Shown one piece after another: positions 9,743-14,479 of a DNA stretch of 64,000 nt. Source of the stretch: Glycomyces sambucus (lineage in GTDB: Bacteria > Actinomycetota > Actinomycetes > Mycobacteriales > Micromonosporaceae). Position numbers and translations under genes: made by a program. Each line of letters opens with the position of its first letter. The stretch's first letter is position 1. Location of the stretch: the NCBI RefSeq assembly GCF_900102815.1, contig NZ_FNGF01000006.1, forward strand, positions 434,001-498,000, given 5' to 3'. A model generated the notes under the pieces. That model had not been told where the DNA came from. It saw only the letters and a program-made list of their open reading frames with translations, and searched no databases.

Positions 9743-12265
9743 TTGACTTGGCGGACCGAACTCGAGCGGGCCGCGGCGCGGCTGCGCGAAGCCGCCGGGG
9801 CCGCTGACCGGGCCGAGCGCCTGCTGGTCGACGCGGCCTCGCGACTCGCCGCCGACGACACCGAGCGGCGCAGGAGCGAACTGGCCGAACGGCTCTCGGC
9901 CGCGGCGGCCGGGGCCGCGAGCGGCTGGCTCGGCGACGACCTCGCCCGGACCGACCCGAACACGCCGCCGCGGACCGAGGCGCCCGACGCGGAGGCCGTG
10001 CGGATCGGCACGGCGCTGCTCGACGACGCGCCCGCGTTCCCCGCGCTCGCGGGCCTCCTCGGCAAGGGCCACCTGGTGTGCGGCGGCGACGCGGCCGACC
10101 CGCGGGTGGCCGGGATGCTCCAGTCGCTGCTGGTGCGGGTCACCGCGGCCCACCCGAACCTCGAACTGTCCCTGGTCGACGGCGTCACGCTCGGGCAGGT
10201 GTTCGCGCCCGCGACCGCGCTGGTCGACGCCGGGATCGCGGCCCCCGTCGCCACCGACCACCTCGCGCTCGGCCGGGTCCTCACCGCCGCCGAGAAGCGG
10301 CTCACCGAACTGCGCGACATCGCCGCGCGCGGCCAGTCGATCGCCGACCGGCCCTACCACCTCATCGTCATCGCCGGACTCCCGCCGGAGGTCGGCAAGT
10401 CCACGCGCGAGCGCCTCGCGGCCCTCGCCCACGCCGGGCCCTCCGCCCGCTGCCACCTCGTGCTGTGCGGCTGGCGCCACCTCCCCCACCGCGAGCCGCT
10501 GCCCGCGATCGAGCACGCCACCTACCTCGACGTCGGCGACGAGGTGCGCCTCGGCAGCCTCCCGCTGCCGGTGGTCCTCGACGCCCCGCCGCCGCCCGCT
10601 CTGGCGCGCAACGTGTTCGGGTCCCGCGCCCGGCAGCGCCGCGAGGCCGGGGAGCTGTCGGTGGCCGACCTCGTGCCCGAGGAGCTGTGGACCGAGTCGA
10701 GCCGCAACGGCCTGACCACCGTCATCGGCCGCGACCAGGCCGGGCACACCGCGGGCGGCGACGTCGAGGTCTCCTTCGACGACGCGACCCCGCACTGGCT
10801 CATCGGCGGGCGCACCGGCGGCGGCAAGACCGTGTTCCTCCTCGACGTCCTCTACGGACTCGCCACCCGCTACTCCCCCGACGAGCTGGAGCTGTACCTC
10901 CTCGACTTCAAGGAGGGCGTCTCGTTCACCGAGTTCACGCCCTCGCCGCTCGACCCGTCGTGGATCCCGCACGTGCGCGCCGTCGGCGTCGAGTCCGACC
11001 GCGAGTACGGGGTGGCGGTCCTCAGCGCGCTCCGCGCCGAGCTCACGCGCCGCGCCGGACTCATGAAGCGGGCCGGGGCGACCCGCCTGGCGCGGCTGCG
11101 GGAGCTGCGGCCGGACGTGCGGCTGCCGCGGATCGTGGCCGTCGTCGACGAGTTCCACGTGCTGTTCGCCGGGAACGACCGGCTCGCGGGCGAAGCCGTC
11201 GCGCACCTGGAGGAGCTGGCGCGCAAGGGCCGCTCGTACGGGGTGCACCTCGTGCTCGCGTCGCAGACGATCTCCGGCATCGAGGCCCTGTACTCCAAGA
11301 AGGACTCGATCTTCGGCCAGTTCCCGCTGCGCGTGGCCCTGCCGGGCGCGAAGCACCTCCTCGACGAGGGCAACGACGCCGCGGTCGAATCGGTCGGGCA
11401 GGCCGTCATCAACGACGCCGGAGGGCTCAAGGGCCGCAACCGGACCTGCCGGTTCCCGGACGCCTCCAGCGCCGACGACCTCCTCGCGCAGCTCCGTCGC
11501 GACCTGTGGGAGCGGCGCGACTCCGACGAGGAGCCGGTCGTCTTCCGCGGCTTCGACGAGCAGCACCTGGGCTCGGACCCGCGGTTCGCGGCGCTGGCGC
11601 CGACGCACGCGCCGCGGGCCCTGGTCGGGCGCGCCGTTGACGTGCACATGTCGACCGTGGGATACCAGTTCGACCGCAGCCCCGGCCGCCACCTCGCCGT
11701 CGTCGGGACCTCCGTGGTCGCCGCCGACGTGCTCACCTCCGCCGCGGTGTCGCTCGCGCACCAGCACGAGCCGGGCGCGGTCGAGTTCCAGGTCGCGGCC
11801 ACCGCGGCCGGTGCGGAGGAGATCGCGCGGGACCTCGTGGAGGAGCTGAAGGCGCTCGGCCACGAATGCCGCGAACTCGAACCCGGCACGATCCTGACCG
11901 CGCCGCGCGGCAGGCCCGTGTACCTCGTGTGGTTCGGCGCCGACGGCGCCGACGGGCAGCCCGGGACCCTGCGCGACCTCCTGCTCCACGGCCCGGCCAC
12001 CGGCGCGCACGTCATCGGCTGGTGGCGCGGCGCGCGGCGGTTCCTCGACGACATCGGCGGCTCCGCCGGACGCGAGCACGTCGCCGGCGTCGTCGCCCTC
12101 AACATCGCCGCCAACGACCTCGCGGCGATCACCGGCGGCTACGAGCGGTCCTGGGACGCCCGCGCCAACCGCTGCCTGGTCATCGACCGGCACGCCGGCA
12201 CCGAGACCCTCGCCGTCCCCTACGTGCGGCCCGGCCGCCTCGACGAGGTCGTGGAGACCCGATGA
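9743..12265 (+). CDS. Soluble FtsK/SpoIIIE-domain ATPase with three RecA-like modules
   Basis: The 840-residue protein starts at a TTG with GGGGAGG five bases upstream. Residues 1-50 form an Ala/Glu/Arg helix of coiled-coil type. Residues about 330-560 are an FtsK/SpoIIIE ATPase with Walker A GGRTGGGKT at 355-363, Walker B IVAVVDEF at about 464-471, and a sensor-like VLASQTISG. On either side lie two domains with RecA-like strand patterns but no Walker A: about 80-290 (HLVCGGDAADPRVAGML, YHLIVIAGLP) and about 610-840 (GRHLAVVGTSVVAADVL). One active and two degenerate modules recalls EccC of type VII secretion. However, there is no transmembrane segment here, and the next two genes encode membrane proteins. 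The substrate (DNA or protein) is unknown. Confidence 0.85.
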   Translation: MTWRTELERAAARLREAAGAADRAERLLVDAASRLAADDTERRRSELAERLSAAAAGAASGWLGDDLARTDPNTPPRTEAPDAEAVRIGTALLDDAPAFPALAGLLGKGHLVCGGDAADPRVAGMLQSLLVRVTAAHPNLELSLVDGVTLGQVFAPATALVDAGIAAPVATDHLALGRVLTAAEKRLTELRDIAARGQSIADRPYHLIVIAGLPPEVGKSTRERLAALAHAGPSARCHLVLCGWRHLPHREPLPAIEHATYLDVGDEVRLGSLPLPVVLDAPPPPALARNVFGSRARQRREAGELSVADLVPEELWTESSRNGLTTVIGRDQAGHTAGGDVEVSFDDATPHWLIGGRTGGGKTVFLLDVLYGLATRYSPDELELYLLDFKEGVSFTEFTPSPLDPSWIPHVRAVGVESDREYGVAVLSALRAELTRRAGLMKRAGATRLARLRELRPDVRLPRIVAVVDEFHVLFAGNDRLAGEAVAHLEELARKGRSYGVHLVLASQTISGIEALYSKKDSIFGQFPLRVALPGAKHLLDEGNDAAVESVGQAVINDAGGLKGRNRTCRFPDASSADDLLAQLRRDLWERRDSDEEPVVFRGFDEQHLGSDPRFAALAPTHAPRALVGRAVDVHMSTVGYQFDRSPGRHLAVVGTSVVAADVLTSAAVSLAHQHEPGAVEFQVAATAAGAEEIARDLVEELKALGHECRELEPGTILTAPRGRPVYLVWFGADGADGQPGTLRDLLLHGPATGAHVIGWWRGARRFLDDIGGSAGREHVAGVVALNIAANDLAAITGGYERSWDARANRCLVIDRHAGTETLAVPYVRPGRLDEVVETR

Positions 12266-12915
12266 GCCTGAGCGCCTACGAAGACCTCGTCCACGAGCTC
12301 GCGCGCCTCGACGCCGACTCCGCGGCCAGCACCGCGCAGGCCCAGCGAAAGCTGGAGCGGCGCAAGGCGGCCCTGAAGGAGGTCCGGACCGCGCTCGACG
12401 CGCAGACCGCCCGGGTCGCCGAGCTGTGCTCGACCCTGCGGCAGTCCACCCCCGACCTCATGCCGACCTCGGCGATCGAGGAGGCCGAAGCGGCCGTAGA
12501 CGAACCGGAGACCGCCCTCGCGCACGCGAACACCGCACTGCGCGAGGCCGAGCTGTCGCTGCGGGCGACCGTGCGGGCGGCCCAGCGGCCCACGCTGCTG
12601 CCGGACGTGCACCACGTGGTCCGCGAACTCCTCGTCTACGGCTCCTGCATGATCGCCTGCCTCATCGGGCAGCTGATCTACCTGGCGGCCACCGGCGGAG
12701 GCGGCGAGGCGAGCTGGTGGGTCATGTTCCTGCCGCCCGTCATGGCCGCGCTCGTCGGATATCTGCTGGTCGGGGCCGCCAACCGGCCCCGGCTGCCCCT
12801 CACCGACCGCAGCGGCAAACCTGTGAAGGCGGTCGTCCCCCACAACCCGCGTCTGGGAGTGACCCTCGCGGTCTGCACAATGGCGCTGTTCGCCTATTTC
12901 GCGTTCTTCGCTTAG
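12262..12915 (+). CDS. Coiled-coil protein with three C-terminal membrane segments
   Basis: I do not recognise a family. The 217-residue product overlaps the ATPase gene by ATGA, so translation is coupled. Residues 1-110 are charged helices with heptad-like Leu/Ala spacing (ELARLDADSA, KLERRKAALKEV, ALAHANTALREAEL). Then come three membrane segments at about 120-140 (YGSCMIACLIGQLIYLAA), 150-170 (WWVMFLPPVMAALVGYLLV) and 197-217 (TLAVCTMALFAYFAFFA). It looks like a membrane anchor that could hold the FtsK-like ATPase, whose own N terminus is also coiled-coil. This role is inferred only from position. Confidence 0.8.
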   Translation: MSLSAYEDLVHELARLDADSAASTAQAQRKLERRKAALKEVRTALDAQTARVAELCSTLRQSTPDLMPTSAIEEAEAAVDEPETALAHANTALREAELSLRATVRAAQRPTLLPDVHHVVRELLVYGSCMIACLIGQLIYLAATGGGGEASWWVMFLPPVMAALVGYLLVGAANRPRLPLTDRSGKPVKAVVPHNPRLGVTLAVCTMALFAYFAFFA

Positions 12916-12933
12916 AGCTGCTTGGAGGAACCC

Positions 12934-13542
12934 GTGGGTTTCGTGCTCCCGGTCATCGTCGCCGTCATCGGCGTGTGGATCGCGTTCTCGATCGTCGTGT
13001 GGGCCACCGGCCGCGACACGCTGCTGGACCTCGCCCCCGCCGGCGCCCCGGCCGGACTCGGCGAGGAGGAGCCCGTCAGCGAGGGCTCCATCGGCGCCCT
13101 CAAGTTCGACACCGGCGCGCGCGGCTACCGCACCGACCAGGTCGACGCCGCCCTGAACCGCCTCGCCTGGGAGATCGGCCGCCGCGACGAGCAGCTCGCG
13201 GCCCTGCGCGCCGAACTGGAGCCCGGTGCGGAGGCGGAGGACAAGGGCGAAGCTGAGGACAGGGCCGAAGCGGAGGCCGAAGTCCTCGCCGCGGCCGACG
13301 AGGGCGTGGCACCCGCCGGAGGGCCCGTCGCGGACGCGGTCGAGGCCGACGCCGCCGAGGCCGAGGAGTCCGCCGCGGGAAGCTCCGATGCCGGGAGGTC
13401 CGAAGCGGACGAGCCGTTCGAGAAGCCCTTGGACGAGGGCGCGTTCCGGTCCGCGGAGGAGTCCGGCACGGACGGCGACGGCGCCGGACGTGAGGCAGGG
13501 CGCGAGGATCAAGGGGAGCAGACGCCGCGCGACCGGTCGTGA
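12934..13542 (+). CDS. Membrane-anchored DivIVA-domain protein (Rv1209-like)
   Basis: The 202-residue protein has one N-terminal membrane segment (residues 2-25, GFVLPVIVAVIGVWIAFSIV) and a short DivIVA-type motif at about 55-85 (KFDTGARGYRTDQVDAALN followed by a predicted helix). The acidic Ala/Glu/Asp tail of about 100 residues is probably disordered. The short DivIVA motif with one membrane segment matches M. tuberculosis Rv1209, which also lies between the folP2 and DUF3117 genes. The GTG start was chosen because GGAGG ends five bases before it; an in-frame TTG lies 12 bases further up. The family is thought to act at cell poles or division sites. The gap from the coiled-coil gene is 18 bases. 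Confidence 0.82.
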   Translation: MGFVLPVIVAVIGVWIAFSIVVWATGRDTLLDLAPAGAPAGLGEEEPVSEGSIGALKFDTGARGYRTDQVDAALNRLAWEIGRRDEQLAALRAELEPGAEAEDKGEAEDRAEAEAEVLAAADEGVAPAGGPVADAVEADAAEAEESAAGSSDAGRSEADEPFEKPLDEGAFRSAEESGTDGDGAGREAGREDQGEQTPRDRS

Positions 13543-13554
13543 TGGGATAAGCCC

Positions 13555-14085
13555 ATGCGTTATTGGCTGCTGGTGTTGAACGAGGACGAGTACGCGGAGC
13601 AACAGGCGTACGAGGTCGAGGCAGTGGAGCCGGGCGCGGCCCTCCCCGACGGCGCCGCGGACGGCGACGAGGTCGCGCTGGCCGGCCCCGAGGGCGTCTT
13701 CGCGCTCGGCGAGCTCGACGGCCCCGCGATCGCGTACCGGCGGCGCCTCGAAGAGCCCGAGAAGACCGACGAGAGCGCCGCGGCGGCCGAGCGCACGCGC
13801 GACGCCGCGGGCGTCGTGGCCGGCGGCTGGACGGCCCTCACGCCGGACGCGTGGGAGGACCTGGTCCGGTCGCTGCCGGTCCCCGAGCGGCGCCGCGACT
13901 GGCTCGTGACGCTGTCGATGCCGATCGAGGCGGTCGACAAGGCCGAGGCCGTGCGCCAGTTCTGGTCGTACATCCGCTCGCTGGGACCCAAGGAGCTGCC
14001 CACGTTCGTGTCGCCGTACGGGCGCGAGATCGAGGGCACGGCGTTCCTGCTGGGGGCCGAACACGAGCAGGATCCGGAAGAGTAG
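13555..14085 (+). CDS. Uncharacterised cytoplasmic protein, last gene of the FtsK-like run
   Basis: I do not recognise this 176-residue product. It has no signal or membrane segment. The start MRYWLLVLNEDEY and the following Glu/Asp/Gly-rich beta segment loosely resemble the opening of EVE/PUA-like domains, but the similarity is too weak to name. The C-terminal half contains a WEDLVRSLPVPERRRDWLVTL helix pair and ends LGAEHEQDPEE. It begins 12 bases after the DivIVA-domain gene, so it is likely the fourth gene of one transcript. Confidence 0.75.
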   Translation: MRYWLLVLNEDEYAEQQAYEVEAVEPGAALPDGAADGDEVALAGPEGVFALGELDGPAIAYRRRLEEPEKTDESAAAAERTRDAAGVVAGGWTALTPDAWEDLVRSLPVPERRRDWLVTLSMPIEAVDKAEAVRQFWSYIRSLGPKELPTFVSPYGREIEGTAFLLGAEHEQDPEE

Positions 14086-14311: not shown

Positions 14312-14479
14312 ATGGCGGCCATGAAGCCGCGGACCGGCGATGGTCCGTTGGAGGTTACCCAGGAGGGCCGCGGCATCATCATGCGGGTGCCGCTGGAAGG
14401 CGGCGGCCGACTTGTGGTCGAGATGTCGCCGGAAGAGGCCGAGACCTTGAACAAGGAACTCCAGGGCGCCCTCGAGTAA
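14312..14479 (+). CDS. DUF3117 domain-containing small protein
   Basis: This 55-residue protein is almost entirely the actinobacterial DUF3117 domain: MAAMKPRTGDGPLEVTQEG, RVPLEGGGRLVVEMS, and a short C-terminal helix EEAETLNKELQG. Mycobacterial Rv1211 is the same size. The start at 14312 was chosen over an in-frame ATG 21 bases upstream because the family begins with MAAMKPR and GGGGAG is well placed. Function is unknown. Its strong conservation and its place beside the Rv1209-like gene suggest a housekeeping role in actinobacteria. A compact hairpin follows. Confidence 0.92.
   Translation: MAAMKPRTGDGPLEVTQEGRGIIMRVPLEGGGRLVVEMSPEEAETLNKELQGALE

What the first reader, a model, noticed from the sequence alone, without database searches (positions are those of the whole stretch)
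9743..14085. Possible undescribed system: soluble triple-domain FtsK/EccC-like ATPase with membrane anchor and DivIVA-domain partner
Four tightly spaced genes (4-base overlap, then gaps of 18 and 12 bases) encode an 840-residue ATPase with one intact FtsK module between two degenerate RecA-like modules, a coiled-coil protein with three membrane helices, a membrane-tethered DivIVA-domain protein and a small unknown protein. One active and two inactive modules is the EccC plan of type VII secretion, but the membrane part is on a separate protein and no Esx-like substrates or EccB/D/E genes are near. The DivIVA-domain gene is an old neighbour (Rv1209), so the ATPase and coiled-coil genes may have been placed beside a polar or septal marker. 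A role in moving DNA or protein at poles or septa is an inference.
Basis: partly seen in the sequence, partly recalled or inferred. Interest (0 to 1): 0.75.

Follow-up and report, generated by a model that had tools for sequence, protein, structure and literature searches.

The report
Compact type VII-like export motor pair
A Glycomyces bacterium carries a two-gene unit, conserved in many related actinobacteria, made of an ATPase predicted to fold like the motor of type VII secretion and a predicted membrane-anchored partner; the pair likely exports small proteins, predicted to be hairpin-shaped, whose genes sit beside it in many relatives.

Summary
In detail: four tightly packed genes at 9743-14085 in a Glycomyces genome. 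A homologue of the coiled-coil/3-TM gene follows the ATPase in 69 of 71 testable loci. The DivIVA-domain and 176-aa genes adjoin it only in Glycomyces and near relatives. The ATPase model (pLDDT 87.5) has three RecA-like modules; only the middle one keeps its motifs. Its top whole-length match is EccC, and its N-terminal module matches the degenerate DUF domain of EccC5. In 37 of 71 loci an 86-aa gene follows, predicted as a two-helix hairpin. It lacks WXG and shows no sequence link to WXG100. Related hairpins lie in or just upstream of DddA-like toxin frames in 14 of 30 loci. Hairpin genes track this ATPase, not canonical EccC: seven genomes with EccC but without this ATPase have none. Best reading: motor plus anchor of a compact type VII-like exporter. 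A 2012 footnote describes a similar three-module ATPase in Gram-negatives, so this is a new variant. Export itself is inferred.

The parts
9743..12265 (+). Three-module FtsK/EccC-like ATPase, 840 aa, TTG start
   Evidence: Pfam FtsK_SpoIIIE 3.5e-22; model pLDDT 87.5
9926..10651 (+). N-terminal degenerate RecA-like module (residues 62-303), like the DUF domain of EccC5
10808..10831 (+). Walker A GRTGGGKT of the intact middle module
   Evidence: residue 356; GRxGxGKT-type motif in 24 of 24 aligned homologues
11144..11155 (+). Walker B VDEF of the middle module (residues 468-471)
11576..12238 (+). C-terminal degenerate RecA-like module (residues 612-832)
12262..12915 (+). Partner: coiled-coil N-terminus and three predicted membrane helices, 217 aa
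   Evidence: homologue follows the ATPase in 69 of 71 testable loci
12934..13542 (+). DivIVA-domain protein with one predicted membrane helix; judged a bystander
   Evidence: TIGR03544 over cut-off; after the pair only in Glycomyces-type loci
13555..14085 (+). 176-aa protein of unknown family; judged a bystander
   Evidence: match in 57 of 61 family genomes; within about 1.5 kb of the ATPase in five by printed positions

Best explanation
The ATPase and the coiled-coil membrane protein likely form the motor and the membrane anchor of a compact type VII-like protein exporter. The ATPase is predicted to stack a degenerate module like the DUF of EccC, one intact D1-like FtsK core that would hydrolyse ATP, and a degenerate C-terminal module. 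It would dock on the membrane through the coiled coil and three membrane helices of its partner, which would stand in for the membrane helices that EccC carries itself. The cargo would be small proteins of about 86 residues predicted to fold as two-helix hairpins, and toxins that carry a related hairpin at the N-terminus. Shown: gene order, conservation, intact and degenerate motifs, co-occurrence, hairpin-toxin fusions. Predicted: folds and membrane helices. Inferred: hexamer, docking, export, cargo. In this locus the cargo gene is not next door; the genome has one hairpin gene beside a paralogous ATPase and one orphan.
Against: No export was measured. The 86-aa family has no WXG, no C-terminal YxxxD/E and no profile link to WXG100 (probability 6.9, pairwise E 0.005); a two-helix hairpin is a common shape and its Foldseek hits are not significant (best E 0.10, CFP10-ESAT6 rank 4 at 0.26). 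34 of 71 loci, all Glycomyces-type ones included, have no adjacent 86-aa gene. 15 of 193 genomes with the ATPase have no hairpin match. All 200 genomes have canonical EccC, so the toxins could leave by that route. Sixteen of 30 DddA loci show no hairpin match. VIA warns that model parts outside 164-596 are thinly tested. FtsK motors align with the core at a higher Z (28.0) than EccC does with the whole.
Confidence: 0.6

Rival explanations
1. An accessory motor of the canonical type VII system: the pair picks up hairpin cargo and feeds the EccB-EccC-EccD pore instead of having a channel of its own.
For: Canonical EccC in 200 of 200 family genomes; single EccB and EccD in this genome; in five loci picked for closeness the pair lies about 12-14 kb from an EccC gene.
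Against: Seven genomes with canonical EccC lack both the ATPase and the hairpin, so the canonical system does not need it; the partner gives the pair its own membrane part; this genome has three ATPase copies and one EccC match.
Confidence: 0.2
2. A DNA translocase of the FtsK kind, held at the membrane by the partner, moving chromosome or plasmid DNA at septa or poles.
Against: No FtsK gamma domain among the six Pfam families listed; the only whole-length structural matches in the list are EccC/EssC; hairpin and toxin links; DivIVA gene is not next door in other lineages.
Confidence: 0.12
3. An intracellular conflict or defence module: the ATPase acts like HerA/SspH-type motors and the hairpin proteins are scaffolds rather than cargo.
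For: PADLOC hits to SspH (2.8e-20) and mad8 (4.5e-17) in the FtsK core.
Against: Those hits cover the generic core only; the constant partner is a predicted membrane protein; the place beside folE/ftsH-like genes is conserved in many Micromonosporaceae loci.
Confidence: 0.06

Closest known systems
EccC (type VII secretion ATPase)
   Same: RecA-like modules in a row with one intact; core nearest to D1; N-terminal module like the EccC5 DUF
   Different: No N-terminal membrane helices, three modules instead of DUF plus D1-D3, membrane part on a partner protein; NCBIfam EccCa score 95 against cut-off 509
YueA-like ATPase with three HerA/FtsK domains, only the middle active, with solo WXG domains (PMC3482391, Table 1 footnote 6; passages read)
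   Same: Same number of modules and same active one; small helical partner proteins
   Different: Described for Gram-negative lineages as mobile; here actinobacterial and chromosomal, with a dedicated 3-TM partner and a WXG-less hairpin. Orthology between the two was not tested
WXG100/Esx proteins (PF06013)
   Same: About 86 positions, predicted two-helix hairpin with a Gly turn, tandem pairs, related domain on toxins
   Different: 0 of 38 have WxG or a C-terminal YxxxD/E; no profile link
DUF6244 (PF19757)
   Same: 87-aa family found 1.0-6.4 kb after the ATPase in 6 Micromonospora-type loci
   Different: Pfam does not match the 86-aa family to it; no paper in the library holds the name
FtsK DNA translocase
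   Same: Core motor fold
   Different: No gamma domain listed by Pfam; two extra degenerate modules

Membership tests
EccC / canonical type VII ATPase | Score over the NCBIfam EccCa cut-off | tested here: not met
   95 bits against 509.15
EccC / canonical type VII ATPase | N-terminal membrane helices on the ATPase itself | tested here: not met
   only hydrophobic peak is at 651-669, inside the C-terminal module
EccC / canonical type VII ATPase | Several RecA-like modules, one with intact Walker motifs | tested here: met
   model and motifs
EccC / canonical type VII ATPase | EccB and EccD genes in the same locus | tested here: not met
   single match each, on contig C7; the window is on C11
WXG100 (86-aa gene of relatives) | WXG motif between two helices | tested here: not met
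   0 of 38 sequences
WXG100 (86-aa gene of relatives) | Two-helix hairpin of about 100 residues | tested here: met
   predicted model, helices 4-43 and 49-85; shape not specific
WXG100 (86-aa gene of relatives) | Export by a type VII ATPase | not testable with these tools
   needs a secretion assay
FtsK DNA translocase | C-terminal gamma domain | tested here: not met
   not among the six Pfam families listed at E up to 1
Gram-negative three-module YueA-like ATPases | Three FtsK/HerA modules, middle one active | tested here: met
Gram-negative three-module YueA-like ATPases | Common ancestry with that group | not tested
   no such sequence was compared
DivIVA-domain protein (third gene) | DivIVA domain TIGR03544 over cut-off | tested here: met
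   25.9 bits against 22

The most novel reading that the evidence does not exclude
A minimal, self-standing type VII-like secretion machine in actinobacteria: a soluble three-module EccC relative plus one three-helix anchor protein moves a WXG-less hairpin family and hairpin-tagged DNA-deaminase toxins, without EccB, EccD or EccE.
Probability: 0.35. Interest if true: 0.8.

Novelty: new variant of a known kind. Interest (0 to 1): 0.6.

Why it matters
If true, two genes do what canonical type VII systems do with a multi-protein membrane complex, which would open the poorly understood step, how the motor meets the membrane, to simple reconstitution. It would also give a delivery route to hairpin-tagged DddA-like toxins of this bacterial family and a function to a small-protein family found in 178 of 200 family genomes searched.

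Tried and rejected
Four-gene system: rejected, because the DivIVA and 176-aa genes adjoin the ATPase only in Glycomyces and near relatives. Hairpin equals WXG100: not supported. Structure search with the hairpin: not specific. Sequence search of the two flanking modules against PDB: no relative, so their RecA nature rests on the model. T4SS-like genes (TraC/TcpF-like ATPase, M23 peptidase) upstream in Actinoplanes-type loci were considered as part of the system and set aside, since other lineages with the pair lack them. A test by absence of canonical EccC was not possible, since all 200 genomes have it. The partner profile does not find the third proteins of the L120 and L161 operons, so these are partner-like only by place and three membrane stretches. 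Papers: DUF6244 0 hits; Glycomyces with type VII secretion 0 hits; listings were seen with the starts of abstracts, and of these only PMC11154593 (abstract, passages) and PMC3482391 (passages) were opened. I make no claim of absence from print beyond these searches.

Full report
Where it is. The window lies in a Glycomyces genome: the nearest named hits of the ATPase (83-92% identity) and of the partner are Glycomyces; it is G000:C11:434001-498000. Upstream lie an M20 peptidase, a pterin-binding enzyme and an M18 aminopeptidase; downstream a DUF3117 protein, a trypsin/PDZ protease and a TatA/B/E-family protein.

Which genes belong together. I took 80 loci of the ATPase family from named genomes (the best 80 of 565 confirmed stretches), called genes with a script of my own, which cuts some starts short, and clustered them. 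A profile of the partner family finds a copy directly after the ATPase in 69 of the 71 loci that reach far enough; 9 of 80 were too short. The two exceptions are L065, where an 86-aa gene comes first and a partner piece follows, and L066. That profile was built from these loci. A second one, built from 35 sequences without Glycomyces, Stackebrandtia, Phytomonospora or Actinorhabdospora, finds 14 of 14 Glycomyces-type partners at 3e-31 to 3e-23 among the 991 neighbour proteins; the reverse profile finds 31 of 35 below 1e-3. Twenty of 21 aligned partners have three hydrophobic stretches; L115 has two. The single-sequence search with the Glycomyces partner had given 72 proteins whose names, where given, were Glycomyces or Natronoglycomyces, which alone would have looked lineage-specific. 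The DivIVA and 176-aa genes follow the pair only in Glycomyces-type loci. The 176-aa family has one match in 57 of 61 genomes, four of them without the ATPase (G316, G321, G332, G346); by the positions printed it lies within about 1.5 kb of the ATPase in five (G000, G305, G342, G307, G308).

The third gene elsewhere. In 37 of the same 71 loci an 86-aa gene follows the partner; DUF6244-type genes lie 1.0-6.4 kb away in 6 more. The remaining 28, all Glycomyces-type loci included, show neither. All 37 are 86 aa. The model has two helices, 4-43 and 49-85, pLDDT 95. Of 38 sequences (37 plus the L120 copy) none has WxG or a C-terminal YxxxD/E, and all have a G[STA] turn between the helices. Comparison with a profile of 18 WXG100 sequences gives probability 6.9, E 0.005, so I claim no homology. 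In this genome a paralogous operon (L120) reads 88-aa hairpin, 267 aa, 945-aa ATPase, 226-aa protein with three hydrophobic stretches, 184 aa; L161 has the same order of the first four and L165 of the first three, where its fetched stretch ends. The fourth proteins of L120 and L161 are not found by the partner profile. A second paralogue (L119) has ATPase plus a true partner (2.3e-44) and no hairpin gene. An orphan 86-aa hairpin lies at G000:C3:17916-18173. A tree of 78 sequences puts hairpin adjacency in several separate branches, including the deepest, so the window type most likely lost it; some backbone supports are low (0.25, 0.42, 0.50).

Co-occurrence. The same sample of 200 family genomes was searched three times. 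Hairpin family at E <= 1e-3: 178. ATPase family at E <= 1e-60: 193, with at most four candidates scored per genome. Canonical EccC: 200. All seven genomes without the ATPase lack the hairpin; 15 of the 193 with it lack the hairpin too. Hypergeometric chance is 7e-8 by genome and 9e-4 by genus; the genomes are related, four of the seven are one genus, and two of the seven are under 90% complete (69 and 86).

Toxins. DddA-like domains (PF14428) occur in 38 of 101 family genomes. Of the 30 loci returned, hairpin profiles match in 14 at i-E < 0.05: ten in the same frame as the toxin domain, one (L246) at a contig end where I did not check the frame, three (L228, L230, L235) in another frame just upstream. 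Under a slightly looser rule the count is 15 loci, against 1 in reversed and 0 in block-shuffled frames. In L239 a free hairpin frame precedes a hairpin-DddA frame. The other 16 show no match; some of them begin with other helix-like stretches by eye. Hairpin genes also stand in tandem pairs in L155, L164 and L168. Small partners beside tagged toxins are also how known type VII systems are arranged (general knowledge).

Mechanism. The evidence favours a protein exporter over a DNA pump: EccC-like plan, constant membrane partner, hairpin candidates for cargo, and hairpin-tagged toxins. Shown: gene order, conservation, motifs, co-occurrence, fusions. Predicted: folds and membrane helices. Inferred: hexamer, docking, export. 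Whether the machine is self-standing or feeds the canonical pore is open: in five loci picked for closeness the pair lies about 12-14 kb from an EccC gene.

What is known. PMC3482391 (Table 1 footnote 6; [quoted passage not shown] The present family has the same plan but is actinobacterial and chromosomal, has a dedicated membrane partner and a WXG-less hairpin; shared ancestry was not tested. I therefore call it a new variant of a known kind.

Noticed in passing
L267, L268, L269, L270, L271: In five loci picked for closeness the pair lies about 12-14 kb from an EccC gene, with genes between that look like folE, ftsH, hpt, tilS and ppa (names by eye, not searched).
   Followed up: partly
L052, L054, L059, L064, L067, L069, L212: A family of about 200-211 aa that Pfam does not know follows the pair in L052 and L054 and the 86-aa gene in the others; look-alikes follow lone hairpin genes in L154, L158, L162, L166 (by eye).
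   Followed up: partly
L155:2860-3300, L214:3439-3846: Genes of 130-146 aa that look alike lie near hairpin genes and could be immunity or chaperone proteins (by eye; NCBIfam gives no hit for the L155 copy).
   Followed up: no
G000:C3:17916-18173 (L173:4914-5174): Orphan 86-aa hairpin gene in this genome, with no ATPase of the family in the 10 kb read around it.
   Followed up: partly
14312-14479: 55-aa DUF3117 protein (1.8e-27) just downstream of the four genes.
   Followed up: no
L071:1-2796, L071:5327-6466: TraC/TcpF-like ATPase and M23 peptidase genes upstream of the pair in Actinoplanes-type loci.
   Followed up: partly
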